Assembly (NCBI RefSeq): GCF_000003815.2
Contig: NC_049993.1
Coordinates: forward strand, 14,761,642 to 14,825,641
Direction: 5' to 3'
DNA: 64,000 nt
DNA from: Branchiostoma floridae
Lineage: Eukaryota; Chordata; Leptocardii; Amphioxiformes; Branchiostomatidae
The notes beneath the pieces were generated by a model, which ran no database searches, was not told the origin of the DNA, and saw nothing but the letters and a program-made list of their open reading frames with translations. The stretch's first letter is position 1; the number at the start of each line of letters is the position of its first letter. Position numbers and translations under genes: made by a program. Positions 2,982 to 35,393 of this stretch are shown in pieces.

Positions 2982-3018
2982 CTTGGGCCGCGATAAACTT
3001 CCTCTCCTCATCGTATCC
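2982..3018 (-). CDS. RPTP exon 21: PTP domain, YIA(T/A)QG strand; last exon in window
   Basis: GYDEERKFIAAQG matches GYxxxxxYIATQGP of classical PTPs. Donor GTGAG at 2981-2977, soon followed by the LINE. The remaining catalytic exons must lie left of position 1. Confidence 0.88.
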
Positions 3019-6000
3019 CTAAAAAGGTGATAGGAAACATCACACATTATGTAATAAAACTATTTCATGTGTATGTTGTCATTATCATAAAAAGTGCAAC
3101 AGTATTCTGCAAGTAGATTTGATACTTACGCCAATGTAGGACGCGTGTATGTAGTCCGAGTCAGGATCTCCCTCGACCGGGGTGAGCACCACTCTGTCAT
3201 TGTCGTCTGCAGAATTAAGCAATAAAAAGTTTTTTAAATGTCCATATGCTATTATTGTGTCTCAAGAACAAGGTATACTTTAAAATAGTGAAACATCTGA
3301 GAAATGCAGTGAAAACTCTTGACGACTATCATACTCCATATTCGTATTAAACATGTACAAAAATAGTTAAGATAAACAAGTCTATTTAACAATAAGGCAA
3401 CGTGGCCTTAAGTGTTGTTATGTGACGCGTATAATTTCAGATATATCAAATTTGTACATGACTATTTTCCAACAATGCTTTTTTGCAACTAATTAACTTA
3501 TTTCACCTGATAAAAAGTGCGCAAAGTTAAAAAAGTGTGATATTCAATTCAGCCCATATAAGATTATTATGATGAACAAATTTTTTTCTAAAGGGCATCT
3601 CACATGCGATCACGTTCTTGAACCTGTTCTTCTCGCCGTTTGCTTTCTTTAAGTACGCCTTCGCATGTGCCATTCCAAGATCTCCCGGAAGTGCCTGAGA
3701 TAGAAAAATATGATAATTCATATCTTTAAAAGGTAAGTTGATAAAATTAAACGCATATAGTAAAAACAAACCAGCTACAATGCATAGAAAACATTAATGT
3801 ACCATTTTTTTTGACAATTTTGCATTTTATACAATACGTGTTCATGTATTTAAATGGAAGCACCACTAGCTATATGTCACCAGAGCCAATGGACTTACAA
3901 AGACTTTCCTGGAGAGAACAGTAAATATCACGGAAGCCTAATGTTTAAAGGCATACTACGCAGTTTTTTGCGCTCAAATTTGAAATATTCTAGAATTAAG
4001 AAATATCAGATTTACTACTACTTTTTGTCACTTTTTGACACTTTTGTGTCATTATTTCACGTTTGCAACGTAAAGGATTAGCCTACAAACATTCCGCACT
4101 AGGCACCCTGTAACCTTGTGTCCCCCCAAGTTAGACCCTCCAGGTCTTGCTTGCCACCGGTAGGTCCCCCGGGGTGGGGTAATCAGTTAGCACATGCATG
4201 GCAGACTGCAGATAAAGAACACAATGGAGATCTTCTTTGGAAACACCTATATCTAATCATTCTAAAATAGCATATAATCATGAACTTATTAGTCTATTTT
4301 GTAGGATATCAACAAGCTAAGGTCATATTCCCTTCAAAACTGCAAGAAACCTTGTACAGAAAGCTAGTCTACTGTACTCAGAGGAACTGTCAACTGGCCC
4401 CCCACTAGGAAGCCAGGCTGATAAGCAAGAAGCAACAACACACAGAGGCAGTAACCAGCCTGTGCCCATCTGTTTCTTGGAAGATCACAATTTTTATACA
4501 TCATGCTTATGTGGTGCATTGATGTCGCAGCATCTCTCCATGAATATTGGTATGCAATGCTATAGGGTTGATTGAGCTAACAATGTAAAGAAAAAGTAGG
4601 AAAAGCTACTTTTTGTTTTGTTCAAAAATCCCGTAGTATGCCTTTAAGGCAACTAAAGTAATATTAGAGAGTTAAAAGTGGAAATGATCTGGATAAGGCA
4701 ATCTGTATGAAATTGATATCTACTGCACTTTATTCCCACATTGACATCATTATAATATTATCTCATACTTTGAGTGCTTAAAACGGCCCAGAAACAGGGT
4801 GCGCTAGGATTCCCTTAATAATGTAACCACAATAATTAGATACGGCGTCCTCCAAATATTTGCTCCTTGAATGTTTGCATGAAATGGAGTTGCTCCAATC
4901 ATGTTACGCATAAAAGTGCCCCAAAAAAGACTTTGATAATCAAAGTTCTACAACCCTGACTCGGGCTAATATTGCTTGGGTCACCATTGAAATATATATT
5001 GTATTCTGTTTCTTAGATCAGAAATGTATAGTTCATCATCTTTGAATAATTTACTGCATAGTATAAATGACGGCACTACCTTTTATCTATTAACTCCACA
5101 TAATGGTTACCTTGTATTCCTCAGTGAACAGTTGATCGTCGTTTGCGTGTCTCTTGGCAAACACCTGCTCCAGACTTCCCACTGGAACAGGCTGGCGATA
5201 GTCTCGGGCAGACGCTGAGGCCGCTGTAGGTTTTGCAGCCACTCCGGTCTTTTTAGGCTCTATCAACGTAAATAAATGGAAATATTGAACATTTTAAAAT
5301 TGTATTTTTACACAAAGATATTTAGTCTCTTACCAACAAGGTTTTAGTTTGTTTTTTGTCCCTTTTCAAGTTTAAGTGACCAAAAGACAAAGTCACACTA
5401 CAAATTAGCAGATTCCCGTTGAACCTACTACGTGGCATAAGGTGGTATCTCACTGCGCTTAGCATGTGGCACCGGTGCGGCACTGTTGGGTTCGAAAGAT
5501 ACTCAAGGAATTTCAGATATCTAAAGAACGAATATTCTTATGCTTTGTGCATTTTGTTGTTTTCTAAGCCATGCTTTTACTCAATATCTAATGATAAAAA
5601 AATGGCGAACGGATATACGAAAACCTTAACAATGTACTGTCCACCGAGGCCAATATATACTGCTATGCAAAAGAGAAGTAGTGTTCTAACAATGTGAAAG
5701 ACACTATGCCACCATATTTTCTGTTATGTTAGATTAGTATACTGTTGTAGATAGTTTGTAGTTGTTAAGAATGCGTTATTTGCAATTGTACCTGTTACAA
5801 TCGTTGCGCAATAAACTTGACTTTACTTGTAGAAACCAAAACCTTTACAAATTAACTTTCGTGCGAATTTAAAATGCCATACAGAACCGTTTCGTAAATA
5901 AATAGACAAACGGCTAGTGCAATGAGTGCAGTGCCTCCTTCTTTTGTCTTTTGAAACTGAAAATGGAAACGTTATACGAGGTTGGCAGGGCATTATTCCT

Positions 6001-9000
6001 GGATTTCTTACTGACACAAGTGTCCTATGGAATTACCTGGTTTCCTAGGTGCTATTGGTGGTTTTGCATGATCCGGGTCCTGATCTGGGGCCAAGTTTTC
6101 CAGCTGAGCAAGGTTGTCGGCCCCACGAGCCGATGATGTTGATGATCCACCCATAGAATCCCTCTTGTTCTGGAACAGTCCCTTTCTCCTTCACATATTG
6201 AAACAGTTTAGATTTCAGTACATCTTTAATTAGATATTCATACCATATATCTCATTTTGGCTTTGATTTTAACAAATCACACTTTGAATTTTACAGCCTT
6301 GCCATATCGGCACTATTTTTTTGATCAAATTACATTCACCATTCATTCTAATCTCTTTCGTGTTTGGGGTTTTGTGTGTGTTAGTTGACAGCATAATTTG
6401 AAAAAAGTGTAGTTTGGTCGTTGTGTAAATTGGTACTGGACTGACAATACAAAGGATAAAATCTATTCTGTGCATCCTAGTGGTAGTTTTGACACTGCAA
6501 GCAACAGAACGTATGAATTTCGTATCTTGTCTTAAGCAGTCAAAGGCGTATGCTGTCTATTACATTGAAAACACTGGCCTTTGATTAGTTTAGATAAAAT
6601 ATAAACAGTCTAACCTTGCAACGATGATTCCCGCTACTATGGCTGCAACAACAATCACACCCACGATAGCTCCGACCACCGGTCCAGTAGCTCCCGGGCC
6701 ACCACCACCATCATCATTACCACCTGTTACATTCATTGTTAGGGCATAATTTCCTTTCAAAATATATACTAATACTAATACTAAAATTTCCTTTCAAAAT
6801 AGTTAGAGCCTAACGTAGTACACAATACTTTATTGCAAAGAAATAGATTAAATGCATGTACTCTGAACAAACGAGCTCATTTATTAACGTTGAAATGGTG
6901 TTTCCAGGTATAGTTGTGAGAAAAAAATCACCTACCTGTTTGCTGGGGTGGAATGAATTGACTGGAGGTGAACGTCTAAAATGAACAAAAGAAACTGTTA
7001 ATGAATCTATTCGTATTCTAAACTCTATTGACACCTTATATTAAGGCCTAGTGTGTAGGCAAAGCAGGTTTTTTTTTCTAAATAAAGTCTCATACACAAA
7101 GTATTTGCCAGGATCGACATGTATAAATGAACAACTTACATCGGATCCAGATGCTGTCTGCCTTCTACGCCTCCCGTTTGAACACGTACTGAACGCTCGA
7201 ACTGTGACTGTGTACTTGGTGTTTGGCGCCAGCGGCTTGTTGTAGACATTCCCGTCTGGGTGACCGGTTGGTCCGATGGTGCAGCAGGTATTGTCACAGG
7301 CGTCTTCGTTACCAACAGTTATGGAGTTGGTAAACTTTTCACTGCAACGACAACCGGTTGAACTGTAAGGTAACTAAACTGGAAACACGTGTCACTGACT
7401 CTACAAACTCTCATGTGTGAATGGCTCTTTTAATTCCCACCTCTCGAGACTTACTTAAAGGATAAGACACACCCATAGGAACTCAAGCTTCTTCATCGCC
7501 ATGAATACGAGTCCAGTGGGAGATCGGGTTCCTATATCACGATGTAATCGATTTATAACAGTTTCCAACCCAATGGAAATAGGAAGCTTTCAGGTCTTTG
7601 TATAAACGGTCCATATTAAAACATAATGTATAAATCAACAGAATGTTTGGTAGAGTTGTCGGTTTTAAAGCTTCTACGGGCCTGGACGACAGTGGAAATG
7701 ACGCCGGCACTGGGTTTAGTAATTACATTGCAATGTGCATATTCAGATTCCACTAGTACCCTTTAACTATAGTCTCAATATGTAAAGAGTAAAGCATAGT
7801 TGTACCTTGAGAAGGCGTCTGCTACATACGGCAACTCACGACCTCTAATAGCGTTGACATCATTACTGGTCAGTACTCTCGCCTCACTCAGGCCGATGGA
7901 CCGCAGGGTGTCAAGGGTCTCATCATGTTTCATGGGCACCACGATGATCTGGTAGCAACTGTAATGACATACAATATATACACAGATGTTTAAATCTTGG
8001 AAGAATCAGTCTATACGTTGTATTACGTACTACTTTTTTTCTTATGGTTAGATTGATTTATGTGAATGTAAGTTCCATTCACCCACTTCACTGCATTTCA
8101 GAGTTCAATGTAGGTTATAGTAAACTATAATATTCTCATTTTACAGATTGATTATAGTTGTAGTATACAATAGTCAATTTATGTAAAGCATCCACTACAA
8201 CAATGCAATTTTAGAACGAAAGTTTACACATTTATAATACGGTGACATATACACACAGACACACAGACACAAACACACACAAACACAGAGAGTGAGAGAG
8301 AGAGAGACACATATATATATATATATTTACATATAGAGATAGATTGATTGATTGATAGATTGATAGATAGATAAATAGATTGTTCATTATTAGTTTATGG
8401 AGGTATACGTCATTTTAATACCTACCAGATCGGACCGTTCTCCGATGACGCCCGCTGGATGTCCATTTTGAAAGTAGACGAAGTGATTCCATCTTGTGGA
8501 ATACCGGGAACTGGTAATGGCGGAGGTGGTGCTATGAAGGAAAAGAAAAAGAAAAAGATTAAAACAGAATATAACACCTATATTGTCAACATAAAGAACA
8601 TGTATTGACGACCTTTGATAAAATGTATTGCCCAATAGGTTGAAGGATTCAATCACTCATTGGCAATGGTAAGTGTTAATGGCATTTGTTCCTCTCCAAA
8701 AGAAAATATTGTAGACATATTGCACTGAAATTGGTTCAGGGCATATAAAGAGCACCTTAATACTGAATTAAAGGTAGATATTTGATTGATATGTAATGCC
8801 AACGAGCACGGTCTTAACTGGTGTGCCTGCTATAATGTGAAATGGAAATACATATGTATCAATCAATGGCATGAATAAGAAATTAGCTTAAAGGAACCTG
8901 GTTCCCCGTGCAAATTCTGCACTACTTTACAATGAACCAATGTGCATTGTGAACAGAAAGAAATATTCTACCTGTGGCAGGGTTGATACAGATGAATTCC

Positions 9001-12000
9001 AGCTCCTCTGAAGGTTCGCCTTCGTAACACGTTGATGCGGCCACTCTGACGCTGAGCTTCTTGTTCGGACCTACCTCCTTTGTCATAGTCATCGTGTCTA
9101 TCATCACTGTGTCACTCGTAATGCTTTCTATCTCATTCTCACTGGGGTATTCAGGAACTTGGTTCCATGTCCATCGGTAGAGTATCTGTTATGCGACACA
9201 GCATCATCGTTATTGTATTTTGTATCATATTCTATTCCATTTCTTCGGAGCCTTCTGGAGTGGCGGTGCTATCTTTTTGCACTACAATGAAGAATTATCG
9301 ACATCATTAAGTCCACATTCTCAACTGTTTTGCTTTGATTTTTGTTGTTGCTGTAATTGTTGGTAGACAATAGTCTCCTTCGCAAACATTTTTTTGGGAG
9401 TGGGGGCGCTGATTTACGATTTTCAACATTGGCTTTTCTTCATGCTGGGAATGGTAGTTTTGCCACATTAGTCAATGTTGAAAATCACAAATCACCACTC
9501 CTTCCCCAAAAATTGCTGGTGCCACTGAAGTCTGCTAGGGAGTCTATAACTTACCACAGCAAAAAAACAAAACAAAAACACGTAAATTTAATAATCGTTG
9601 AAATCTGCATCATAGTGATGTATTGCCTGTTGTGTTTAACGTATGGTTGTCTGTCATGTTAATGTTGCATCAACCTGTCTTTTGTGCTGTATTGATATGA
9701 CTCCATTGCACAACAATTGTACATGGCAAAATGTATGGCAACGAGAAGGTACAAAATAGAGGTTATATAAGACCACAGTAATAATAGATGGTTATAAAAG
9801 AAGCAAATTGTGGATCAAAATAAAAGTAAAAAAGTAAAAAAAAATGAAGTACCTTATAGTTTGTAAGATCCCCATTAGTCACAGCAGGTGCATTCCATGT
9901 AATGGTGCAACTGACAGCGGAAGTATTTGAAGATTTGACAGCATTTAAATTTGTTGGAGGACTCGGGCCTAAAGTATTGACAAAGAAAATAGTAACATTT
10001 TCATAGTAAAAATAGTCAATGAATTCTCGTAGATTATCATAACTTAAAGTATGATGCTGTTGGATTTTGCTATTAATTGACTGATGTAAAAATATTGAAT
10101 TTCTCATGTACTTACATCCATCAGGGGTGTAAACTATTGCTGGGTCACTTTCGGTCCCGGTGAAAATTGAATTGTAAGCGGCCACCTGTAATATGCGAAG
10201 AAACGTCACAAGTGATTTATTACGCGTAATTTACATTGTGGACATATCTACTTCAAGGAGCTACAACCTGCGTCATCAAAATGGCGGCATTAGAGCAGCG
10301 ATAATTTGTTAGGCGTTCAAACTCTCACACTTCAGCATCTTTCAGGGAAGTTTAGTTTTGAAATACGACCTAATCCATGAAGTGTTAATTTTATTTTAGA
10401 ATTATTTAATGCCAAAAATTAGCACAATGTCTTTAAATTGAGTCAAGACAATGGGACTAATATCTTAGAAGAGCGATCATCCGAATCGTATCTATCAAGT
10501 TAAACAATCGCCAACGCCACGTTTGCCGATATTTTATAACATAATAACATAATGATGATGTTTTGCGTTCGATGTTCCTGACATCCTGGTACATAAAATG
10601 CTATGTTGGAGGAAGACGTTTTGGTTAACCTACCATCACTTGCTGTTTATTACCGCCATTTAAAAAAGGTATAATATTTAAAAACAATTTAAAAAGAGAA
10701 AGCAAGCTTACCGTCACAGTATACTTTGAGTCCGGTTCAAGATTTTCGAGTTGTCCAGTTAGGCCTCCGGTCGTTACGGTTTCCCGCTGTCCACCTGTTT
10801 CGCCACGGAAGTAGTAAATGTGGTATCCCATGACGTCACCATTGTCTCCTTCCGGTGCATCCCACGTCACTGTCGCTGTGGCTTTGTCCGTAACGTCGCC
10901 GGTCACGCAGGCACAGCGTCTAGCGTTAATGACGTCGACGCTTGTTGGTGGATTTGGGACTGAAAAAGCATTATAATATGAAACATACACCGATCTTGAC
11001 TCACAACCAAAAAGTTTCAAGTAAAATGTGCCAAAAATATTGGAAAATTTTGAGCTTCAGTTTTTCCTTGAAAAAATAGCAATATTGCATAAAGCAAAAA
11101 GTAGTAAAAAGCAAACAGCAGAATAGATCTATGATTTGATGTCAGAGTTTACTTTTCTCTTGCATAAAGCAAAAAGTAGTAAAAAGCAAACAGCAGAATA
11201 GATCTATGATTTGATGTCAGAGTTTACTTTTCTCTTGCATAAAGCAAAAAGTAGTAAAAAGCAAACAGCAGAATAGATCTATGATTTGATGTCAGAGTTT
11301 ACTTTTCTCTTGCATAAAGCAAAAAGTAGTAAAAAGCAAACAGCAGAATAGATCTATGATTTGATTGTCAGAGCAAAGTAAACTCAACTTACTGGGTTGA
11401 ATCACAATCGTCTTCGTTTCTATCTCACCGGCCCCTGCGGATGTCACTCCCCAAACTTGAATAATGTAGGTACTGCCAGCTGTTATGCCATTCAGTACAT
11501 ACATTGTCTGGTTACCGACGGTAGTCTGTGGGGTTCCCATGGAAGCTTCGCTGGTCCCGTAGGCAACTTTGTAGTGTAGGATGATTCCCTTTGGTTTGTC
11601 CGGATCAGGCGAATCCCAGGTCAGTGTTATGTCTATCAGTGAACCTGATACTGATCCTTCTGTTCGAAGATTTCGAACTTTTCCTGGAGCTGGAGAATAA
11701 AATTTTTTTTTAGTAAATGCAAATTATAAAAGATGTTGGAACATTCGTCGTTTGCTGTCTCAAAAGACGAAATCCCAGCAAAATTATCTCGGTCTATATT
11801 CTGTAAATGTAGAATAATATAGGAGTAGCTATTTTTATACTTTATTATTAGCTTCCATTCTGAAAAATAATGCTACAGGTTTTTGCAATTGGCCTTTCCG
11901 CATGTATTTGCAATTTAATCATCATTATTAAGACTTATCAGTCCTTATCTGCTTGTGCGAGGATATTAATATATCTTAGTGTTCTTGTTTCCTTTTCCAT

Positions 12001-24210: not shown

Positions 24211-24280
24211 ATGCGGCGAAAGGAACGAGTGACCCTGCTAATTTGTAGCACCTGGCTCGGTCTGATGGCAAGTGTCGTAG
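24211..24280 (+). CDS. Paired receptor exon 1: signal peptide
   Basis: MRRKERVTLL and a hydrophobic run, donor GTAAGG at 24281. Length and first seven residues equal the minus-strand exon 1. A TTG microsatellite starts a few bases into the intron. Confidence 0.85.
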
Positions 24281-27200
24281 GTAAGGTTTGTTGTTGTTGT
24301 TGTTGTTGTTGTCATAGACTTGTTAACCGCGTTACAGTCCATATCTGGTCGTTACAAGGGCTTCGTGGTGTGCGACGTACTAGTATACGGCAACATTTAA
24401 AAGTTTAGACGCACACTGAAATGAATCACAATGTATTACGTGTTTTGAATAATAATTACTTTCACGGTAGTTTCAATGTTATAAGTGTAAAGTTTATCAT
24501 GTAGAACGGTGTCACCTGACGCTATATACGAAGTTAAAACTTATATCAGCATTTTACCCTTAGCGTATAGGGTTACATTTGCTCCTGTATTTCACTCGTT
24601 AAGTTAATAACCTTACGTCTGTGGGACACTATTTACTAACATATTATAAGTACATATTGGCAAAGTTCATTGAAAAAAAGAATGGTGAGGGTACATTTCC
24701 TTAGTCCAATTTATGCTCGGTCATAGGTTGGTCATATCCTCTCTAACTCTAAGCAAGCTGGAGGTCAAGAGCATAAACTTGCAACGGTTGAGACATATTT
24801 TAGGGTATTTATAAGTACCGTCGCTGCACAAAAATGTTACACACTTAGTACTCATTTGATTAGGATTATGTTGACATACAAGCACGTTGGAGTGGAACAA
24901 AAACACTTGAGTAAACCACGTGTGATATGAAATAATGCCTATATAATTTTACTGGTGTAATAAAGTTTCTGTGCAGCTTTGTACATAGAGCATAGGCACG
25001 TACATGATCGTTAATGCCGCTAGATCTTGCTTATTTGCCATCTTTGAATTAAGCAAAATACGTAGGGCCTCTCCTGAATACATCGTTGAGCTTTTCGAAT
25101 AGACACCCCCCCCCCCCCATGCAGCCCCTTACTGAATTTCGCCAAGGTCACTACAAGGTCATGACGCACTTTACTTGTACACGTCGTTACGCTCACTTGA
25201 TTATAATCTACAGGCGTTTTCATGCGTATACTGCAAACAATAATACTGTCGACAACATAAGGTTTTCTAAGATGAAAACTGAAATATTGCAGGTTTGTTA
25301 TGATTTACCCCCACTCCCTTCATTGTCGGTTAACTGCGGTATCAATAGTCAAACAACGTCTGTGATGAATTGGCGCTGTTTCTATTGTTAAGTTCGCTGC
25401 TGATAGCTTTGGTGTTGGCAATGTACACAGTTCACAAAAAAACGGCTTGTAATTACATCTTATAGTTGCTACCTCTATACACTTGTTTATTTTTCAACTG
25501 GTTCCCTGCCTTGAGTTTCTTCACTCACAGCAGATTTTTAAGGACATTTTTCAACGTTTGGAATAAAAAGGAATTTTATCATCCCCAAGAAGAGGTTGTA
25601 TTGTTGTTTTCTTGTCTATGCGGCGTATAAGAAAAAGGTCAAGACTTGCCCTATCAACTTTTGCTTGGAGAGTTAAATGAAGTGGCTGTAAAGCTCAGGA
25701 TCTAATTTTTTGGCGACACCACAGGGGTGGAGTAATTTCTCTGACATTTGAAAACTCCCCTGTCCTTCGTTACAGGCACAAACCCGCCGCAGGACTGTGC
25801 CGACCTGTTCGCGACCGGGACCCGACAGAGCGGCACCTACATGGTCGGTGAACCCTTCCCGTATCAGGTCTACTGCGACATGAGCTTCCTTGGCGGCGGC
25901 TGGACAGTCCTTCAACACCGCCAGGATGGATCCGTAGACTTCGCCAAGACTTGGGAGGAATATCAGCAAGGGTTCGGCGACCTGGACGGAGAGTTTTGGC
26001 TAGGGCTGGACAAGATCCACACACTGACAACGGCAAAGAGTAACAACATTCTTCAGATTGAGCTTGAGGATTTTGATGGAGAAAGGAGGTACGCGCGGTA
26101 CGGCACATTTTCAGTCGGGGGTTCGAGTGATAATTATTTGGTGACTATTGATGGGTACACAGGAGACGCAGGGGACAGTCTGACTAGCACTGGGAATGAT
26201 GGACGAAACAACATAAACAGACAAAAGTTTTCTACGAAAGATCTGGACAATGACGGAAACATTGGTGATTGCTCGTCTACATTCGGCCAAGGTGGTTGGT
26301 GGTACCCGCTTGCATGTGGACAATCCTTCCTACACGGAAAGTATAACTGTCATCTCAGCTCTTCCTCCTGTGGTAGATTAAACGGAGTCCTTTGGACGGG
26401 ATGGGGAGGAGAAAATCACTTCTTGAAGAAAACAACAATCATTATCAGGCCTGCTGACTTTACAGGTAAAATAAACTTTAATATTTTTCCACAAAATTTA
26501 TATTCAGTTCAGTGTTGTATTGAGCAACGAATTGGTCCTGCCTTGTTGTTTGTTTAGTCAAAGACACTTGTTAGTAAGTCGTGTATGTGTAGTCCCGATT
26601 GAACTTTTACTTACTTTGATTGGTGTAGCGCCTATAACTTACACAAAGAAGTCTGAAACATACTGATACAGCGATACCCCTTCAAAACCAGGCTCTGACG
26701 CGCCTCAGGACTGTGCCGATCTATACGAAGACGGGATCATAGAAAGCGGAATCAACGCCGTCAGCGATCCCCGCGTCTTTGTGTACTGCGACATGAGGAA
26801 CCACGGCGGCGGGTGGACCCTGCTACAGCGCCGACAGAACGGGTCTGTGGACTTCGCTAAGAACTGGGCAGACTACGAGCAGGGGTTTGGAAACCTCGAT
26901 GGAGAGCATTGGCTCGGACTGAGCAAACAGAACCAAATCACGGGGCAGAAGACATACAGCTTACGTGTAGACTTGGGAGATTGGGAAAACCAATTTCGGT
27001 ACGCGACGTACAACAGCTTTAGTGTCGGTGGCAGCAGTACGAACTACCAGGTTAGCATCAGCAGCTACTCAGGTGATGCTGGTGACAGTCTCGCAAGTGG
27101 GGGAAACCGTTTTAGCATTAACGGTATAAGTTTCACGACCTCAGACGACAACAATGGTCCAAATACTGCAAACTGTGCGGGCAACTTTGGTGGGGGTGGA

Positions 27201-30200
27201 TGGTGGTTTCCAGACAGCTGTGGGCGAACAATGCTAAATGGGCGGTACAACGACTCGCGAAGAGCACAGGGTGTTCATTGGGATACATGGAAGGGGTGGA
27301 GTTACACTTTAAAGATGACATCACTCAAAGTAAGGCCAAATAACTTTCCAGGTAAGTGTTTCCACTTTCAGTTCCTGTTTTTGTTTCTTTAAATTCATTG
27401 CTTGTCAATTTTTCATCTCACCTCACACTTGTCGATCACGAGTGCGGACTAATAGTTATGCTGAAGTAGCATTTGCTTTTGAAGCGCGATATTCTATTAT
27501 TCAACACATGAATGTTGCCAGCATACAATGCTACAACGTTAATATTATGTGATCTTTTGTTATTTTACCCAGTTTGTCCAAATGGTACGTTCGGATCGTC
27601 CTGCTCTGACACATGTCATTGTCTGAACGGAAACGCCTACTGTAACCACGTGAGTGGTGCATGCTTAGGCGGATGTGTGGACGGGTGGGCGGGGAGCGAC
27701 TGTCAGACGGGTAGGTGTCCACACAACTTTGCTAGCTATATATGCATGCCTGCTTTAGAAATAAATCGAATGTTTTGTATTTTTAGACTGTGCAATAGTA
27801 TCAAATGTCTTACGTTGTGAGATAGTTCAGGGTTCAAAGTTTGTAAAATGAGATAAGTACTCACGAGTATTTTTTTCTTCTTTTTCGTTGTCTTCTGTGT
27901 CATAGACTTTCTTACCGCAAACTACCCGACCGAGCACCGGTTGGGAAAATGTGATCATAGCATAATATCGATGCTTTTAGCCTAATTATCCAACCGCGAT
28001 ATCAAAGTGTTTAAATTTGCAAAATCATGCCCGAAGCCTAACTGCACAAGGAATAAGAGAAGTAGATAGTGTGATACATAAAACAATTGTCTAATTAACT
28101 ATATGATACAATGAATACTATTGTCGGGTTTGACTTCTTCTTCGAAGGCAGTGGTTGATGAACTGTCCGCGTTTTGTATGATGGTGGGATTTTGTGCTTT
28201 TAGTAGAAATATAGTCAGCACTGTATTCTGCTTTACGCTATGCGGTAAAACGGCATTGTGTGCGTAATGGCCCAGACTAAGTTTCGTTTGTAAATCAGAT
28301 AAATGTACAGATAAATGCGCAGAATTAGAAGAAAAGTCAATCATAACATCGTTACTGCGAACTGACGAATCAGACATCCCACATTGTTGTTTTGACGTCG
28401 TTATATGTTTTTCCAGTATCAGTCCCACCACAATTTGGTCAACCAGCTCCAACAGATGAAACCCGAAATGCAGGGGAGTCCCTAACCTGGACCTGCCAAG
28501 CAACAGGCGATCCCTTGCCAACTACAACTTTCTGGCATGAAAGGGACGACCTTTCCGCCACAAGTACAACAGAAACTGAGTCAGGCATCCAGTACACCAG
28601 AAGCATCTTCTCCATAAACTCTGTAAGTCGTGGCGACAACGGGGCCTACAGCTGCGCAGCCAGTAACATCGGAGGATACGTAATAGCAAAGTTCTCCTTG
28701 ACAGTCCACGGTAAGTATTGTTGACACGGTGTGTTGACATACACAAGCAATACCCTTAATTGCAGGCTCAATAGCAGTGATGTAATGTTAAACGGTAACA
28801 GGTGAATTTTGCCTCTATTTTCTCATTTTATCTTCCTAATGTAACTTTTTAGCGACAACCATTGTTATACAGTACACAATGTGTCATTAATACATAAAGC
28901 TCTGTCTCACAAACTCCATTGCTAACTTTTATACCGGTAAATGACTTTATACATGATGAGGTGAACATTGTCATTTGTTAGAATTTTCTAAAAACAATAT
29001 TGATTTTCTTCGCAGAAAGACCAGACCCTCCCATTATTGACAGCGGCCTCACCACAACAAGTACTTCCATAGCGGTCACGTGGACATTTCCGTACTTCGG
29101 CAACCTACCGATCATACAAGTACAGCTACAGTATCGGGAGGCGGCACCAAGTGGTTCATGGATAACGGTCACTCTTCCGGACAGTCCGAGTGATTACAAC
29201 ATCACGGGATTGGACCCATTCACCTTGTACAGTATAAGGATATCCGCGGAAAACGACCGTGGTTTCAGCGACTTCTCTGATCTTGTCAATGTGCAAACAC
29301 CTGAATCACGTAAGTGCTATAACATTTTCCTATTCCGTGTAGTTAGACCCTAAAACTTATACTTTCATAATTTAGTCTATAGTCAAATTTCGAGATGTAC
29401 ATGTTAAATGTGTTGGAAACCCTTACAACTATTATGTCGATGGCATGCCAACAAACGCTTTGAACGAACGGTTTAAAAACAACTCGGGACTTTAGATTTT
29501 CAATAAATGTTATCACAAAAAAATCTGCTAGAAAAGGGACAGAATTATTCAATTTTAATCAAAACGTAAATCATCTACTTTTCTCTTACAATAAGGGTAT
29601 GGCACCCCGTAAAGGGCGGTATAACCTCACCGGTGTTGTAAAACACCGTATAACCATTACAATGACAAGCACACCAAGACTAGAACGATTTTATTACAAA
29701 TACCGAAGGATAATTTCAGAAAAATGTAATAATGATGTAAGAATAATAGTTTTCTACTTACCAGATCAAATGCAACATCTTAAATACAGATCAAGATACT
29801 TTGATTTGTTTGAGTTACTTAATCTATTGAAGCAGTGGTAGGCTAAGTAATCTTCTAATTCTATATTCTATTTTATTTTTATTTCAGCTCCAGGAAAAGT
29901 TCGAAATCTTCGAACAGAAGGATCAGTATCAGGTTCACAGATAGACATAACACTGACCTGGGATTCGCCTGATCCTGAAAACCCAAAGGGGATCATCCTA
30001 CACTACAAAGTTGCCTACGGGACCAGCGAAGCTTCCATGGGAACCCCACAGACAACCGTCGGTAACCAGACAATGTATGTACTGAACGGCATAACAGCTG
30101 GCAGTACCTACATTGTCCAAGTTTGGGGAGTGACCTCCGCAGGGGCCGGTGAAAAAGAAACGGAGACAATCGTGATTCAGCCCAGTAAGTTTAGATTACT

Positions 30201-33200
30201 TTCTTCTGACAACCCTATTCTAAATCCATTCTGCTGTTTTGCTATTGATTTTTATCGAAAAACCGAAGTTTCAAGTGTTCAAGTATTTTCCGGCGCACTT
30301 TATTTCTACCTTTTGGTTATGAGTAAAGAACGGTATATCAGGGCGATATATGTTCAATATCAGAATGTTTTTTTTCAGTCCCAAATCCACCATCAAGCGT
30401 CGACGTCATTAATGCTAGACGCTGTGCCTGTGTGTCCGGCGACGTTACGGACAAAGCCACAGCGACAGTGACATGGGATGCACCGGAAGGAGACAACGGT
30501 GACGTCATGGGATACCACATTTACTACTTCCGTGGCGAAACAAGCGGAGGGCGGGAAACCGTAACGACCGGAGGCCTAACTGAACAACTCGAAAATCTTG
30601 AACCGGACTCAAAGTATACTGTGACGGTAAGCTTGCTTTCTCTTTTTAAGTTGTTTTTAAATATTATACCTTTTTTAAATGGCGGTAATAAACAGCAAGT
30701 GATGGTAGGTTAACCAAAATGTCTTCCTCCAACATAGCATTTTATGTACCAGGATGTCAGGAACATCGGACGCAAAACATCATCATTATGTTATTATGTT
30801 ATAAAATATCGGCAAACGTGGCGTTGGCGATTGTTTAACTTGATAGATACGATTCGGATGATCGCTCTTCTAAAATATTAGTCCCATTGTCTTGACTCAA
30901 TTTAAAGACATTGTGCTAATTTTTGGCATTAAATAATTCTAAAATACTTCAACACTTCATGGATTAGGTCATATTTCAAAACTGAACTTCCCTGAAAGAT
31001 GCTGAAGTGTGAGAGTTTGAACGCCTTACAACTTATCGCTGCTCTAATGCCGCCATTTTGATGACGCAGGTTGTAGCTCCTTGAAGTAGATATGTCCACA
31101 ATGTAAATTAAGCGTAGTAAATCACTTGTGACGTTTTTTTCGCATATTACAGGTGGCCGCTTACAATTCAATTTTCACCGGGACCGAAAGTGACCCAGCA
31201 ATAGTTTACACCCCTGATGGATGTAAGTACATGTGAAATTCAATATTTTTACATCAGTAAATTAATAGCAAAATCCAACTGCATCATACTTTAAGTTATG
31301 ATAATCTACGAGAATTCATTGACTATTTTTACTATGAAAATGTTACTATTTTCTTTGTCAATACTTTAGGCTCGAGTCCTCCAACAAATTTAAATGCTGT
31401 CGAATCTTCAAATACTTCCGCTGTCAGCTGCACCATTACATGGAATGCACCTGCTGTGACTAATGGGGATCTTACAAACTATAAGGTACTTCATTTTTTT
31501 TTATACTTTTTTACTTTATTTTGATCCACAATTTGCTTCTTTTATAACCATCTATTATTACTGTGGTCCTATATAACATCTATTTTGTACCTTCTCATTG
31601 CCATACATTGTACCGTGTACAATTGTTGTGCAATGGAGTTCGTCATATCAATACAGCACAAAAGACAGGTTGATGCAACATTAACATGACAGATAACCAT
31701 ACGTTAAACACAAAAGGCAATACATCACTATGATGCAGATTTAAACGATTATCAAATTTACGTGTTTTTTTTTTTTTTTTGCTGTGGTAAGTTATAGACT
31801 CCCTAGCAGACTTCAGTGGCACCAGCAATTTTTGGGGAAGGAGTGGTGATTTGCGATTTTCAACATTGGCTAATGTGGCAAAACTACCATTCCCAGCATG
31901 AAGAAAGCCAATGTTGAAAATCGTAAATCAGCGCCCCCACTCCCCAAAAAATGTTTGCGAAGGAGACTATCGTCTACCAACAATTACAGCAACAACAAAA
32001 ATCAAGGCAAAACAGTTCATGATGTCGATAATTAAAAAAAATAGCACCGCCACTCCAGAAGGCTGCGAAGAAATGGATAGAATATGATACAATATACAAT
32101 AACGATGATGCTGTGTCGCATAACAGATACTTTACCGATGGACATGGAACCGAGTTCCTGAATACACCAGCGAGAATGCGATAGAAAGCATTACGAGTGA
32201 CATAGTGATGATAGACGCGACGACTAAGACAAAGGAGGTAGGTCCGAACAAGAAGCTCAGCGTCAGGGTTGCCGCATCAACGTGTCACGAAGGCGAACCT
32301 TCAGTTGAGCTGGAATTCGTCTGTATCAATCCATCCACAGGTAGAATAATTCTTTCTATTCAAAATGCACATGTGCATTGGTTTATTGTAAAGTAGTGCA
32401 GAAGTCGCACAGGGAACCAGGTTCCTTCAATTAAGTTATCCATGCCGTTGATTGATACATTTGTTCTACCATTTCACATTATAGCAGGTACACCGGCAGT
32501 TACGACCGCGCTCCTCGGCGTCACATATCAATGAAATGTCGACCTTTAATTCAGTAATAAGGTGCTCTTTATATGCCCTGAACCAATTTCAGCGCAATAT
32601 GTCTACAATAATTTGTATTTTCTTTTGAAGAGGAACAAATGTCATTAAGACATACCATGCCAATGAGTGATTGAATCCTTCAACATTTTGGCCAATACAT
32701 TTTATCAAAGGTTGTCAATGCGTGTTCATTATTTTTACAATATAAATGTTATAATCTGTTTGTTATCTCCCCTTTTCACAGCACCACCACCGCCTTTACC
32801 GATTCCTGATATTCCACAAGATGGAATCACTTCGTCTTATTTTAAGATGGACATCCAGCGGGCGTCATCAGAGAACGGTCCGATCTGGTAGGTATATGCA
32901 TCACCGCATTATGCATGTGTGGAATTACCTCCTAAAATTGTGAAATTGTAGACTTTTACACATAAGTAAAAAGCTTTAAGAAATTCTATACGATAAAGAA
33001 CTTTTTGAAGGAGCATATAACTGTTAACAACTTACACTGAACTCTGAAATGCGGTGAAGTGGGTGAATGGAACTTAGATTCACATAAAACAATCCAACCA
33101 TAAGAAAAAAAAACAGTACGTAATACAACGTATAGACGGATTCTTCCAAGATACAAATATTCTGTGTATTTCGTATATGTTACTTCAGTTGCTACCAGAT

Positions 33201-35393
33201 CATCGTGGTGCCCATGAAACATGAGGAGACCCTTGACACCCTGCGGTCCATCGGCCTGAGGGAGGCGACAGTGTTGACCAGTAGTGATGTCAGCGCGGCT
33301 ATTAGAGGTCGTGAGTTGCCGTATGTAGCAGATGCATTCACAAGGTACAGATATGCTCTTTTATACATATATAAGACTATAATTTCAAAAGTTGGAAATT
33401 AAGTGGACGGTGCACTGTACAACATACTGTAAAAAGTAAGTTCCGGAATCTCACCTACTGCCTAGGCCCATAGAAGCCTGAAAAGCAATAAGTCTACCTA
33501 ACATTCTCATTCTGTTGATTCATACATTATGTTATGATATGGACCGTTTATGATCATACTGAGAAATTCATATTTCCATTGTGTCGGAGACAAAAGTTTT
33601 CATTGTGACTGAGGGGCTTAAGCAAACTCCCAATGGACTAATATTCATACCGATAAAGAATGTCGAGTTCCTTATTGCGTCGTATCTCTTCAATCAGTCT
33701 CTGAATATTGAGAGGTGAGAATTCATATGGCCTTAGACGCTAGCCAGAGTCTCTTCTGTCCTCTCCTCAAATACTTGCGGAGAGGACAGAAGAGACTCTG
33801 GAGCTATAATATGGCTAGATACCTGGCTACTTAGACGCATGGACGTTTGTTACTTAAATTGTCTTAATGTTATTAGAAACTCCTTAGAATCAATGATACA
33901 TGGTTCCAGTTTAGTTACCTTACAATTCAAACTGTCTCCGTTGCAGTGAAGAATTTACCAGCTCCATAACTGTTGGGAACGAAGACGCATGTGACAATAC
34001 CTGCTGCACCATCGGACCAACCGGGCACTCAGACAACAATGTTTACAACAAGCCACTGGCGCCAAACACCAAATACACAGTGACAGTGCGTGCATTCAGT
34101 GTGTGTACAGACGGGAGACGGAGGAGGCAGGCAACACTTGGATCAGATGTAAGTTATTCACTAATACATGTAATAATTATTTGTAATTCCTGGATAAAAT
34201 TGGTCAGTCTTGCTTGATATAAAAAAAAACTGATTAACTTATACATTAGACTATGCTGATTATTATTATTTGTAATGTATTCCTGTTTTTTTAGACGTTC
34301 ACCTCCAGTCAATATATTCCACCGCAGCAGACAGGTAGGTGAAAAGAATTCCTGTTGCAATCAAGATAATTGCTCTGTAAATTTCCAAAAGAATGCAATC
34401 TACCCCAAATGACGAATCAGCTTATTGCAATAAACGGACGGTAATGTTTAAACTATGATTTGAGCTTATGTTTGATAACGTTTTCAATCCACTATCCGCC
34501 AGGGTCGATGGTGGGCCATAGGGAGGAGGTGGTGACGTGGGCAGTACCAGTGTCCATCATGGCAGCCGTTCTCATTGTGTCACTTTTGGCCAATGTTTTC
34601 TTCATCATCAAACGTAGAAGGTTTGTGTCCCATACAACGAGTGTAAACTTTAACTTTAGCATGCCAAGTCCACTCAGTTCTATAAAAAGTGAGTCGATGA
34701 AATTTTTTCTTAGACAGTGTAAAATCACTTGCATATACATCACTGGTAAAACCTAACCATGAATATGCTGCAACAGTATGGGATCCGTATACAAAGAAAG
34801 ACAAGGATAAACTGGAAAGGGTGCAGAACCAAGCTGCCAGATTATGTACAAACAACTACAACAGGGATTCTAGTGTTATACCGGCTATATTGATACAGAT
34901 ACAGATACAGATACACGACTAAAAAAAAAGTACGATTGTGCAGTGGCATATTTTGTAGGTTATATGTCAAAGGTGAAGACCCCTGACACATATGCAAAAC
35001 ATGCCAAGGGACTATTAATCAAGACAATGGTATTAAGAAACTCTTAACAAGTTAGGGGTCGACGATATGATTTTCTAATCGGATACTTTCAATAGGGCTG
35101 CGAAAGAGCCAACAACCCCCACTCATGCGCACGACATGATCGAACCAGGAATCTCCAATGACAACTACGACATGGTCGACACTCAGGATTCTCGCTCCCC
35201 GGCCAGGAGTCCACGAGCCCCGGCAACAGTTCCTTCTCCATCCGGAGTCTCTGGAACCCAGTCAGACTCTGACTACCAGGCACTGGACCCTAGAACCATG
35301 TGTAGCACCGAATACACGAGCCTGAACCATGTGCACACCCATGTAATCGACCCAGTCTATGTAAACGACCCTGAATATGTAGAACTATTCTAA
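24211..35393 (+). CDS. Paired FBG-FBG-EGF-Ig-FN3x4 receptor with short tyrosine tail, no phosphatase (17 exons)
   Basis: Seventeen exons joined at GT/AG borders give 1337 codons including the stop (1336 residues). The ectodomain repeats the minus-strand receptor exon for exon: signal peptide (1-23), FBG1 (24-253), FBG2 (254-473), EGF-like (474-519), Ig (520-617), FN3 at 618-715, 716-814, 815-920 and 921-1030, RPTP-like membrane-proximal region with an RRRR furin-type site (1031-1198). Then come an unrelated transmembrane helix (about 1210-1232), KRRR stop-transfer, and a 99-residue tail. The tail has tyrosines at about 1262, 1298, 1311, 1326 and 1332 and no catalytic domain. It is probably a plasma-membrane receptor that signals through docked SH2 proteins. 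The exact transmembrane-tail splice is the least certain join. The start is supported by the mirrored exon 1 of the neighbour and by the signal-like hydrophobic core. Confidence 0.9.
24281..25775 (+). other. Intron 1 of the plus-strand receptor
   Basis: Starts with a TTG microsatellite (24286-24312) and has a poly-C run near 25107. The last 70 bases (GGCGACACCACAGGGGTGGAG) mirror sequence just upstream of FBG1 in the minus gene. No coding signal seen. Confidence 0.7.
25776..26465 (+). CDS. Paired receptor exon 2: fibrinogen C-terminal domain 1
   Basis: Complete FBG domain, 690 nt: DCADLFATG, YCDMSFLGGGWTVLQ, FWLGLDK, acidic loop KDLDNDGN, GGWWYPLACG, LHGKYN. The first half is almost the same as the minus copy; the second half is strongly changed. 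Confidence 0.93.
26692..27351 (+). CDS. Paired receptor exon 3: fibrinogen C-terminal domain 2
   Basis: Complete FBG domain, 660 nt: DCADLYEDG, MRNHGGGWTLLQRRQNGS, HWLGLSKQ, GGWWFPDSCG, MLNGRYND. The acidic loop reads SDDNNGPN, one residue short and without the DND order seen in the minus copy, so calcium binding here is doubtful. Confidence 0.93.
27573..27710 (+). CDS. Paired receptor exon 4: EGF/laminin-like module
   Basis: Eight-cysteine module: CPNGTFGSSCSDTCHC, CNHVSGACLGGC, GWAGSDC. 138 nt, phase 1-1. Confidence 0.9.
28417..28710 (+). CDS. Paired receptor exon 5: immunoglobulin domain
   Basis: WTCQATGDPLP, then FWHERDDL and DNGAYSCAASN give the two cysteines and core Trp of an I-set Ig fold. 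294 nt, phase 1-1. Confidence 0.92.
29016..29309 (+). CDS. Paired receptor exon 6: fibronectin type III domain 1
   Basis: RPDPPIIDSG, VTWTFPYFGNLP, YNITGLDPFTLYSI and ISAENDRGFSDF. 294 nt; contains an N-glycosylation sequon at NIT. Confidence 0.9.
29888..30184 (+). CDS. Paired receptor exon 7: fibronectin type III domain 2
   Basis: LTWDSPDPE, YKVAYGTSEAS, NGITAGSTYIV. 297 nt. The sequence NQT is a potential glycosylation site shared with the minus copy. Confidence 0.9.
30379..30626 (+). CDS. Paired receptor exon 8: fibronectin type III domain 3, first part
   Basis: NPPSSVDVINARR, VTWDAPEGDNGD, YHIYYFRGE, LENLEPDSKYTVT. 248 nt, phase 0 out. Only about five residues differ from the minus copy. 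Confidence 0.9.
31153..31222 (+). CDS. Paired receptor exon 9: fibronectin type III domain 3, end
   Basis: VAAYNSIFTGTESDPAIVY plus linker; 70 nt, donor GTAAGT at 31223. The protein segment equals the minus copy. Confidence 0.87.
31370..31485 (+). CDS. Paired receptor exon 10: fibronectin type III domain 4, first part
   Basis: SSPPTNLNAVESS and ITWNAPAVTNGDLTNYK; 116 nt, phase 0 out. Confidence 0.87.
31828..31952. repeat. Intronic foldback element, right copy
   Basis: Mirror copy of the element at 9389-9514, with the same arms around GATTTTCAACATTGGC. Flanked by a poly-T run at about 31766-31780. Confidence 0.65.
32127..32340 (+). CDS. Paired receptor exon 11: fibronectin type III domain 4, second part
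   Basis: ILYRWTWNRVPEY ... KKLSVRVAASTCHEGEP ... VCINPSTG. 214 nt, phase 1 out, same length as the minus copy. Confidence 0.85.
32782..32887 (+). CDS. Paired receptor exon 12: proline hinge
   Basis: APPPPLPIPDIPQDGIT followed by SENGPI. 106 nt, phase 2 out. The splice to the next exon makes CCYQ. Confidence 0.85.
33189..33344 (+). CDS. Paired receptor exon 13: RPTP-like membrane-proximal region
   Basis: YQIIVVPMKHEETLDTL and RELPYVADAFTR. The RPTP-type region persists although this gene encodes no phosphatase, which supports descent from an RPTP. Confidence 0.87.
33744..33801 (+). repeat. Perfect 23-bp stem hairpin in an intron
   Basis: Arms 33744-33766 and 33779-33801 are exact reverse complements (CCAGAGTCTCTTCTGTCC...), with a 12-base loop. 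The matching intron of the minus gene lacks it. It could be a tiny foldback repeat or a miRNA-like precursor. Confidence 0.85.
33947..34148 (+). CDS. Paired receptor exon 14: membrane-proximal region with furin-type site
   Basis: SITVGNEDACDNTCC, NKPLAPNTKYTVTVRAFS, GRRRRQ (RRRR at 34116-34127). 202 nt, as in the minus copy. Confidence 0.87.
34295..34334 (+). CDS. Paired receptor exon 15: stalk before membrane
   Basis: TFTSSQYIPPQQTG, 40 nt, one residue different from the minus copy. Last exon of shared ancestry. Confidence 0.82.
34503..34620 (+). CDS. Paired receptor exon 16: transmembrane segment
   Basis: HREEVVTWAVPVSIMAAVLI then VSLLANVFFIIKRRR: one hydrophobic helix with a basic stop-transfer. 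No charged residue inside the helix, so it does not look like an adaptor-pairing receptor. Donor GTTTGT is weak; reading through it would give a short alternative tail ending at 34756. Confidence 0.82.
34755..34873 (+). pseudogene. LINE reverse transcriptase C-terminal fragment
   Basis: Translates to YAATVWDPYTKKDKDKLERV and QNQAARLCTNNYNRD, the signature after the thumb domain of many LINE reverse transcriptases (YAAPVWNPYTxxDIxxLERVQ). It lies between the transmembrane and tail exons of the plus receptor, at the place where the two receptor genes stop being alike. Confidence 0.75.
35096..35393 (+). CDS. Paired receptor exon 17: cytoplasmic tail with ITAM-like tyrosines
   Basis: The acceptor at 35094-35095 keeps frame and gives 99 residues to the TAA at 35391-35393. 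Tyrosine motifs in order are NYDMV, SDYQAL, TEYTSL, VYVND and EYVEL. YQAL and YTSL are nine residues apart, inside the 6-12 window of ITAMs. SDYQAL also fits the ITIM consensus, and YVN fits Grb2 SH2 binding. A Ser/Pro/Arg-rich stretch lies between the first and second tyrosine. The C-terminus ELF could meet a PDZ domain. No similarity to the minus-gene linker or PTP domain. Confidence 0.75.

What the first reader, a model, noticed from the sequence alone, without database searches (positions are those of the whole stretch)
2982..35393. Head-to-head paired receptors: one phosphatase, one tyrosine-tail, with a shared ectodomain plan
Seen: two divergent genes with 15 matching ectodomain exons totalling 3595 coding nt in each, then unrelated transmembrane and cytoplasmic parts. 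One continues into a PTP domain, the other ends in a tail with five tyrosines. Known: vertebrate immune paired receptors keep similar ectodomains with opposite signalling parts. Inferred: a phosphatase/substrate or inhibitory/activating pair, possibly reading the same or competing ligands. I know of no described FBG-based system of this kind.
Basis: partly seen in the sequence, partly recalled or inferred. Interest (0 to 1): 0.92.

Follow-up and report, generated by a model that had tools for sequence, protein, structure and literature searches.

The report
Lancelet mirrored phosphatase and tyrosine-tail receptors
In a lancelet, two neighbouring genes that point away from each other encode receptors with nearly the same outside but different insides, one a phosphate-removing enzyme and one a tail built to be phosphorylated, and a third gene puts a kinase under the same outer block, so one kind of signal could be read with different signs.

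Summary
Two head-to-head genes share 15 exons totalling 3,595 coding nt in each, with equal phases and GT-AG sites. Outside the window the minus gene completes as a 33-exon, 1,886-aa receptor phosphatase with intact D1 and D2 signature motifs. The plus gene ends in its own transmembrane exon and a five-tyrosine tail, homologous to two genes on contig C18 with WSC and CUB domains upstream, so it is a chimera. Its core, YQALDPRTMCSTEYTSL, is ITAM-like.

The ectodomains are 83.5% identical and constrained (dN 0.086, dS 0.356). A 1.5-kb tract including introns is 97% identical, indicating gene conversion. The 852 bp between the start codons hold five GGAAGT words.

A second lancelet ectodomain family is likewise shared by kinases and a phosphatase, 66-74% identical over about 1,000 residues.

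Most likely: paired receptors of opposite sign. Expression, ligand and signalling are untested. New variant of a known kind.

The parts
24211..24280 (+). plus gene exon 1: start codon and signal peptide (MRRKERV...)
25776..26465 (+). plus gene exon 2: fibrinogen-like domain FBG1
26692..27351 (+). plus gene exon 3: FBG2
27573..27710 (+). plus gene exon 4: EGF-like domain (named by eye; no Pfam match)
28417..28710 (+). plus gene exon 5: Ig domain
29016..30184 (+). plus gene exons 6 (29016-29309) and 7 (29888-30184): FN3 domains 1 and 2
30379..31222 (+). plus gene exons 8 (30379-30626) and 9 (31153-31222): FN3 domain 3
31370..32340 (+). plus gene exons 10 (31370-31485) and 11 (32127-32340): FN3 domain 4
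32782..34334 (+). plus gene exons 12-15 (32782-32887, 33189-33344, 33947-34148, 34295-34334): juxtamembrane domain, weak match to PTP_tm of PTPRJ, with an RRRR (furin-like) site
   Evidence: E 0.00097, below Pfam's cut-off
34503..34620 (+). plus gene exon 16: transmembrane segment, homologous to two genes on contig C18, unlike the minus gene's
35096..35393 (+). plus gene exon 17: cytoplasmic tail, 98 aa, five tyrosines, core SDSDYQALDPRTMCSTEYTSL, stop TAA
23289..23358 (-). minus gene exon 1: start codon and signal peptide
17573..18253 (-). minus gene exon 2: FBG1
14543..15211 (-). minus gene exon 3: FBG2
14192..14329 (-). minus gene exon 4: EGF-like domain (named by eye)
12949..13242 (-). minus gene exon 5: Ig domain
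11393..12482 (-). minus gene exons 6 (12186-12482) and 7 (11393-11689): FN3 domains 1 and 2
8972..10959 (-). minus gene exons 8-11 (10712-10959, 10116-10185, 9853-9968, 8972-9185): FN3 domains 3 and 4
6936..8531 (-). minus gene exons 12-15 (8426-8531, 7806-7958, 7140-7341, 6936-6975): juxtamembrane domain with RRRR site
6615..6723 (-). minus gene exon 16: transmembrane segment
5111..6188 (-). minus gene exons 17 (6037-6188) and 18 (5111-5259): juxtamembrane linker
2982..3694 (-). minus gene exons 19-21 (3604-3694, 3130-3206, 2982-3018): start of phosphatase domain D1; 12 further exons lie outside the window at C15:14759848-14753153 and complete D1 and D2
23359..24210 (.). the 852 bp between the two start codons, presumed shared promoter region, with five GGAAGT words, three facing the minus gene and two the plus gene; the 5' flanks are homologous (edge of the inverted duplication)
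30501..32000 (+). core of the gene-conversion tract, 97-98% identical to the minus gene including introns (partner stretch about 9310-10840)

Best explanation
A pair of head-to-head paired receptors of Branchiostoma floridae, made by inverted duplication of an FBG-type receptor protein tyrosine phosphatase (shown). The minus copy kept its transmembrane segment and two phosphatase domains with intact signature motifs (shown by sequence; activity not tested). The plus copy lost the phosphatase and carries a transmembrane/tail module also found on two contig-C18 genes with WSC and CUB domains upstream (homology shown; capture by exon shuffling is inferred). Purifying selection (shown) and gene conversion (shown by the identity pattern) have kept the ectodomains alike. 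Inferred mechanism: both copies read the same or overlapping ligands, probably on the same cells because their start codons are 852 bp apart. A Src-family kinase phosphorylates the YQALDPRTMCSTEYTSL core of the tail, which recruits a tandem-SH2 protein and signals. The phosphatase copy, and perhaps competition for ligand, sets the threshold by dephosphorylating the tail or its kinase. A third receptor with the same FBG-FBG-EGF-Ig block and a tyrosine-kinase cytoplasmic part would add a kinase arm.
For: Exact 15-exon match and intact frames. Complete D1/D2 phosphatase. Ectodomain dN 0.086, dS 0.356. Conversion tract: fewest differences in any 700 exonic sites 30, expected 88.5, shuffled minimum 54, 0 of 2,000 shuffles as low; longest identical run 115, reached by 0 of 5,000 shuffles (the shuffles do not keep local rate differences, but introns 8-10 are 97-98% identical too). 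Transmembrane and tail exons homologous to two C18 genes: 3 of the 7 matches at E<=10 (10 candidates scored) have E<1e-20, the window's own and these two. Upstream of both lie WSC and CUB, with a sub-threshold SUEL match in one, and no FBG-receptor match apart from the transmembrane segment. The tail core is identical at 29 of 29 residues between plus and P0004, against 42 of 69 elsewhere (Fisher p 1.3e-5, block chosen after seeing the alignment). An ITAM-pattern match appears in 0.045-0.055% of shuffled tails. Five GGAAGT words in 852 bp; 0 of 610 other windows reach five. Kinase arm. A lancelet Src-family kinase (BbLck) and an amphioxus receptor phosphorylated on ITIM-like tyrosines are published (PMC8211107, passages read).
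Against: No expression, ligand or signalling data. The tail evolves faster in the plus gene: dN/dS 0.77 against L032 and 0.40 against L033, while L032 against L033 gives 0.25; one tyrosine present in L032, L033 and P0004 is lost. In D1 of the minus gene a glycine replaces the aspartate of the YIDGY-type motif that 8 of 8 other lancelet receptor phosphatases keep, so full activity is not certain. The 9-residue spacing between the two YxxL units is longer than in most vertebrate ITAMs (6-8, recalled). FBG1 residues near the FIBCD1-type pocket differ between the copies (SSY..LNC in minus, STF..LAC in plus; pocket assignment recalled), which argues against an identical ligand. The protein search found the tail-type FBG receptor in B. 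floridae alone, 1 protein of 138 candidates and only lengths of about 735-2,340 aa.
Confidence: 0.58

Rival explanations
1. Two ordinary adhesion receptors. After the duplication the copies took up different ligands and tissues; the plus tail signals on its own, and nothing couples the two beyond shared ancestry and chance gene conversion between linked repeats.
For: Residues near the FBG1 pocket differ. FBG1 and FBG2 have diverged well (dS 0.515 and 0.694), while the converted tract covers FN3 domains only. Linked inverted repeats convert without any selection (established knowledge).
Against: Low dN/dS over the whole ectodomain. Start codons 852 bp apart with a GGAAGT cluster between them. 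The same ectodomain block is used again by a kinase, and a second family repeats the pattern.
Confidence: 0.22
2. The plus protein is mainly a partner or brake of the phosphatase: through its near-identical ectodomain it forms mixed dimers with it, or acts as a decoy, and its tail is a built-in substrate or docking site rather than an activating arm.
For: The FN3 domains 3 and 4 are nearly identical. The tail has two ITIM-pattern sites, SDYQAL and TEYTSL. The only amphioxus receptor with tyrosine motifs that I found tested in print is inhibitory (PMC8211107, passages).
Against: The plus transmembrane exon is not of the phosphatase type. The same module sits under unrelated ectodomains on contig C18, so it probably signals without this phosphatase there.
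Confidence: 0.14
3. The plus gene is a dead or mis-modelled copy: the tail exon does not belong to it, or the gene is silent.
For: No transcript evidence was available. P0004, the only database relative of the tail that I found, is a database protein of unknown support with skipped exons and a minus-type transmembrane exon.
Against: 1,336-aa open frame with 16 canonical introns. The exon 16-17 arrangement recurs in two other genes. Ectodomain under purifying selection.
Confidence: 0.06

Closest known systems
SIGLEC11 / SIGLEC16 (human paired receptors; PMC5701461, passages read)
   Same: Two head-to-head genes; homologous ectodomains, about 3 kb highly similar, through gene conversion; different signalling ends.
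   Different: Ig lectins, ITIM against an ITAM-adaptor partner, about 9 kb apart. Here the ectodomain is FBG/EGF/Ig/FN3, one arm carries a phosphatase in the receptor itself, and the start codons are 852 bp apart.
CEACAM1 / CEACAM3-type, CD300 and FcR-like paired receptors (search listing and abstract openings only)
   Same: Similar ectodomains with opposing cytoplasmic parts, concerted evolution, lineage-specific members.
   Different: None uses a receptor phosphatase or kinase as the second arm, in what the listing and recalled knowledge show.
Receptor protein tyrosine phosphatases (R2A type PTPRS/LAR; R3 type PTPRJ/PTPRB)
   Same: Minus gene: FN3-rich ectodomain, juxtamembrane domain resembling PTP_tm, furin-like site; D1 and D2 as in R2A (recalled).
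   Different: Tandem FBG domains at the N-terminus; two phosphatase domains, so not R3. The R3 survey found no R3 orthologue in B. floridae (PMC5336234, passage read).
Angiopoietin / Tie2 / VE-PTP
   Same: FBG, receptor kinase and receptor phosphatase act in one system; the nearest solved FBG domains by sequence are angiopoietin-1 and FIBCD1.
   Different: There the FBG is on a soluble ligand, and kinase and phosphatase have unrelated ectodomains (recalled). Here the FBG block is on the receptors and is shared.
Lancelet FBG receptor kinases (NCBI: uncharacterized LOC118431370, 'FGFR1', LOC109487598) and FBG receptor phosphatases ('PTPRS-like', 'PTPRA')
   Same: The kinases share the FBG-FBG-EGF-Ig block with the minus gene at 73-79% identity over 607-619 aligned positions; the phosphatases share its whole plan.
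   Different: Names given by automatic annotation; in what I searched, no source joins kinases, phosphatases and tail form as one set.

Membership tests
Paired receptors (definition as in PMC5701461) | significant homology of the extracellular domains | tested here: met
   83.5% over 1,201 columns, same exon plan
Paired receptors (definition as in PMC5701461) | opposite roles in signal transduction | tested here: inconclusive
   Sequence types are opposite (phosphatase with intact motifs; tyrosine tail); signalling itself not testable here
Paired receptors (definition as in PMC5701461) | overlapping expression | not testable with these tools
   Only the 852-bp gap between the start codons is seen
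Paired receptors (usual) | same or overlapping ligand | not testable with these tools
   No binding data; FBG1 residues near the pocket differ
Paired receptors (usual, not defining) | gene conversion between the ectodomains | tested here: met
Receptor protein tyrosine phosphatase (minus gene) | signal peptide, transmembrane segment, phosphatase domain with HCX5R and WPD loop | tested here: met
   HCSAGVGRTG and WPDFG in D1, HCSSGAGRTG in D2; one conserved aspartate of D1 is glycine
Receptor protein tyrosine phosphatase (plus gene) | phosphatase domain | tested here: not met
   No phosphatase exon downstream in the window or the next 210 kb, which hold some N
R3-type receptor phosphatase | FN3 ectodomain and one phosphatase domain (PMC5336234 abstract opening) | tested here: not met
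   FBG, Ig and two phosphatase domains
ITAM receptor (plus gene) | [D/E]xxYxx[L/I]-x(6-12)-Yxx[L/I] (relaxed, recalled) | tested here: met
   DSDYQALDPRTMCSTEYTSL; found in 0.045-0.055% of shuffled tails
ITAM receptor (plus gene) | strict spacing of 6-8 residues between the YxxL units (recalled) | tested here: not met
   spacing 9
ITAM receptor (plus gene) | binds Syk/ZAP-70-type tandem SH2 when phosphorylated | not testable with these tools
   needs an assay
ITIM receptor (plus gene) | [S/I/V/L/T]xYxx[L/I/V] (recalled) | tested here: met
   SDYQAL and TEYTSL; binding of SH2 phosphatases not testable
Lancelet FBG-FBG receptor set (kinase / phosphatase / tail) | shared FBG-FBG-EGF-Ig block | tested here: met
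   minus against kinases P0030-P0035: 73-79% over 607-619 aligned positions, 6 of 6

The most novel reading that the evidence does not exclude
Lancelets run a sign-mirrored receptor system. The same ectodomains are mounted on a tyrosine kinase, a tandem tyrosine phosphatase and, in one case, an ITAM-like tail, so one ligand class is read as phosphorylation, dephosphorylation or recruitment at once. Exchange of ectodomain sequence between the arms, seen here between the tail and phosphatase genes and suggested across types in B. lanceolatum, keeps them matched. Kinase and phosphatase would then be two ends of one receptor family rather than two families, at least twice in this animal.
Probability: 0.3. 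Interest if true: 0.92.

Novelty: new variant of a known kind. Interest (0 to 1): 0.8.

Why it matters
Paired immune receptors are treated largely as a vertebrate story of Ig and C-type lectins with ITIM/ITAM ends (recalled). Here the same design appears in a lancelet with a receptor phosphatase as one arm, a tyrosine-tail module shared with other genes as the other, and a receptor kinase reusing the same N-terminal block. It makes testable whether kinases and phosphatases can be paired by sharing an ectodomain, and whether ITAM-like tails with YxxL-x9-YxxL circulated as portable modules before vertebrate immune receptors arose.

Tried and rejected
Considered and rejected: a downstream phosphatase for the plus gene (none found); a pseudogene in either orientation (no early stop or frameshift); P0004 as a third locus of this assembly (one search finds close juxtamembrane exons only at the two window genes, 8 further matches at 52% or less; one search finds no tail closer to it, so a divergent haplotype or a faulty model is likelier, undecided); membership in R3 phosphatases.

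Led nowhere: Pfam on 20 open frames (the only line was E 0.083, taken as chance; I had picked frames that miss the retroelement's long open frame, seen later); Rfam (none); tRNA (none); solved structures for the juxtamembrane domain (none at E<=1). P0003, whose second FBG resembles FBG1, was left out of the second tree; the first tree holds it. The groups tested are natural ones but were tested after the first tree had been seen, so the p-values are lenient.

Paper searches (10 of 10). Nothing listed described this pair, FBG receptor phosphatases in lancelets, or a phosphatase-based paired receptor; some searches listed 20 of 51, 20 of 95, 10 of 41 and 15 of 140 papers, and the library holds open-licence papers only. 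I saw passages of PMC8211107, PMC5701461, PMC5336234 and PMC11788884, otherwise listings and abstract openings.


Full report
Where it is. The genome search places the window at C15:14761642-14825641 of an unnamed 513-Mb genome; C15 and C18 are contig numbers. A 1.8-kb stretch of C15 encodes FBG1 and FBG2 of P0034 letter for letter. NCBI files P0034 under Branchiostoma floridae, and C15 has the contig length given for it. I therefore take the window to be B. floridae (inference).

The two genes. Plus gene: 17 exons, 24211-35393, 1,336 aa. Minus gene: 21 exons in the window and 12 more in the adjoining stretch, C15:14759848-14753153, with GT-AG introns and a terminal TAG, giving 33 exons and 1,886 aa. 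D1 carries HCSAGVGRTG and WPDFG, D2 HCSSGAGRTG (the meaning of the motifs is recalled). In D1 the aspartate of YIDGY-type motifs, kept by 8 of 8 other lancelet phosphatases examined, is glycine. Pfam finds two fibrinogen domains, Ig and four FN3 stretches in each gene, a weak PTP_tm in each, and Y_phosphatase in the minus gene only. Exons 1-15 total 3,595 nt in each.

How alike, and why. Ectodomain dS is 0.356 and dN 0.086 (ratio 0.24). By exon, dS is 0.44-0.69 in exons 2-6 and 0.00-0.16 in exons 7-11; of the rest, exons 1, 12, 14 and 15 have 0.33-0.46 and exon 13 has 0.12. Introns 8-10 are 97-98% identical, the others 63-88% with many gaps. In 300-base steps the stretch 30501-32000 of the plus gene is 97-98% identical to the minus gene, its neighbours 87-94%, the first three steps from 29001 76-86%, and the five from 32901 82-87%. 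This is the mark of gene conversion, not of a uniformly young duplication. The 852 bp between the start codons hold five GGAAGT words, oriented with their nearer gene; 0 of 610 overlapping 852-base windows elsewhere reach five (highest three). The two 5' flanks are homologous (local score 122; highest of 200 shuffles 28). Reading GGAAGT as an ETS site is recalled.

Where the plus tail came from. Searched over the whole genome, the tail gives 7 matches at E<=10 among 10 candidates: itself, two on C18 at E 8.6e-34 and 4.0e-23, and four weak ones. Both strong relatives have a similar upstream transmembrane exon (WAVPVSIMAAVLLVS... and WAAPVSVLGAVLLVS...) and KRRR boundary. The open frames upstream match WSC and CUB in both, and in one also SUEL lectin and sushi below Pfam's cut-offs; none of the gathered FBG receptors matches there, apart from the plus gene's own transmembrane segment. 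Part of one fetched stretch read N, so that ectodomain is incompletely seen, and these gene models were not built. Of the four weak matches, three (L034-L036) repeat the spacing YQxL-9-YTxL in other tails; the fourth (L037) does not. So the tail looks like a module that sits under different ectodomains. Its core is strictly kept, the rest is not. The plus copy is the least constrained (dN/dS 0.77 and 0.40 against the two relatives, 0.25 between them), which counts somewhat against an essential role of the outer tyrosines.

The third arm. A search with FBG1-FBG2-EGF returned 835 proteins at E<=1e-30 among 7,982 scored, 120 listed. The five best are lancelet receptor kinases, 79-81% identical over 98-100% of residues 1-520, ahead of the phosphatases. 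Pfam finds a tyrosine kinase domain in the three kinases scanned (P0030, P0031, P0034) and SAM in two of the three, not in P0034. In this genome only three places carry this type of FBG1 at 82% identity or more to the minus gene: the two window genes and C15:8303936 (86%); the other 9 of 12 matches at E<=1e-60 are at 56% or less (150 of 560 candidates scored). Kinase exons matching P0034 follow 3-5 kb downstream on the same strand in four pieces at 86-98%, one of which reads through a stop, presumably intron. Synonymous distances to the kinase are 0.64-0.90, against 0.52-0.69 between plus and minus; dN/dS is 0.10-0.22 in all six comparisons. The shared block ends after the Ig domain (about residue 617); the kinases then have EGF-like repeats instead of FN3.

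A second case. Of the 144 proteins gathered plus the two window proteins, 9 carry the phosphatase signature and 16 were taken as kinases by motif, 13 of them with HRDLAAR. The B. lanceolatum phosphatase P0096 and the kinases P0036, P0068, P0073, P0077 and P0082 are 66-74% identical over 1,008-1,085 aligned positions that include the transmembrane segment of P0096. P0077 lacks HRDLAAR but has the precomputed kinase family. So kinase and phosphatase ends were exchanged under one ectodomain more than once. In B. floridae, juxtamembrane matches near C15:8376521-8377330 and 8459098-8459277 are followed by kinase exons within 2 kb, and one at 8487108-8487281 by phosphatase exons within 3 kb; these gene models were not built.

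Exchange between arms. In a tree of 12 FBG-FBG blocks the B. lanceolatum phosphatase groups with the three B. lanceolatum kinases (90/92, not starred), and phosphatases as one clade are rejected (p-AU 0.0125). Kinases as one clade are borderline (0.0515) and tails as one clade are not rejected (0.306). The B. floridae rows do not form one group, the window's two genes pair only weakly (79/77), and one branch of nine is starred. So exchange across types is suggested for one species, not shown in general. P0004, a B. floridae database protein, has a plus-like exon 1 (22 of 23) and tail (70 of 97) but a minus-like transmembrane exon (37 of 38, against 8 of 37 to plus). If it is an allele of this locus, conversion has carried the phosphatase's transmembrane exon into the tail gene there.

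Exon cassettes. P0004 (tail type) and P0005 (B. belcheri, phosphatase type) both lack nearly all of exons 4-7 and all of exons 10-11, in-frame blocks by phase. Two database proteins from two species with the same gaps suggest real short isoforms, without proof.

What is shown and what is not. Shown: gene structures, intact motifs, selection on the ectodomain, conversion pattern, homology of the tail module, existence of a kinase gene with the same block. Inferred: capture of the tail by exon shuffling, co-expression, same-ligand reading, phosphorylation and SH2 recruitment, action of the phosphatase on the tail.

Noticed in passing
window 1-2945, minus strand: A frame open for 898 codons to the window edge, with sequence that looks like endonuclease plus reverse transcriptase of a non-LTR retrotransposon (ATWNV, YADD; recalled motifs), lies in the intron between the phosphatase exons 21 and 22 of the minus gene, in sense orientation.
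   Followed up: partly
window 15417-17542: The large second intron of the minus gene (2,361 against 226 bp in plus) has inverted 16-base matches at its two ends, like a DNA transposon or MITE insertion.
   Followed up: partly
P0004 and P0005 against exons 4-7 and 10-11: Tail-type and phosphatase-type database proteins from two lancelet species lack the same in-frame exon blocks (EGF-Ig-FN3-FN3 and an FN3), as if a short ectodomain isoform were shared.
   Followed up: partly
L032-L036: A tail motif YQxLxPxT...YTxL (YMSL in L032) with 9-residue spacing (11 in L033) recurs in lancelet genes with WSC/CUB upstream or with EGF-, mucin- or sushi-like surroundings (these three by eye): a possible lancelet ITAM-like module.
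   Followed up: partly
C15:8.30-8.50 Mb: Matches to SAM/kinase, RPTP juxtamembrane and phosphatase exons are interleaved over about 200 kb: a likely cluster of kinase and phosphatase receptors.
   Followed up: no
window 20,000-23,200 and 36,000-64,000: No gene recognised: no match to the receptor families, none in Rfam, none in the few open frames scanned with Pfam; direct repeats at 36.1-37.0, 42.1-42.6 and 57.6-58.3 kb and short tandem arrays.
   Followed up: partly
P0003 (B. lanceolatum 'PTPRA'): Its second FBG domain resembles the FBG1 type (64-70% to FBG1, 56-59% to FBG2 exons of the window), as if FBG1 had been copied over FBG2.
   Followed up: partly
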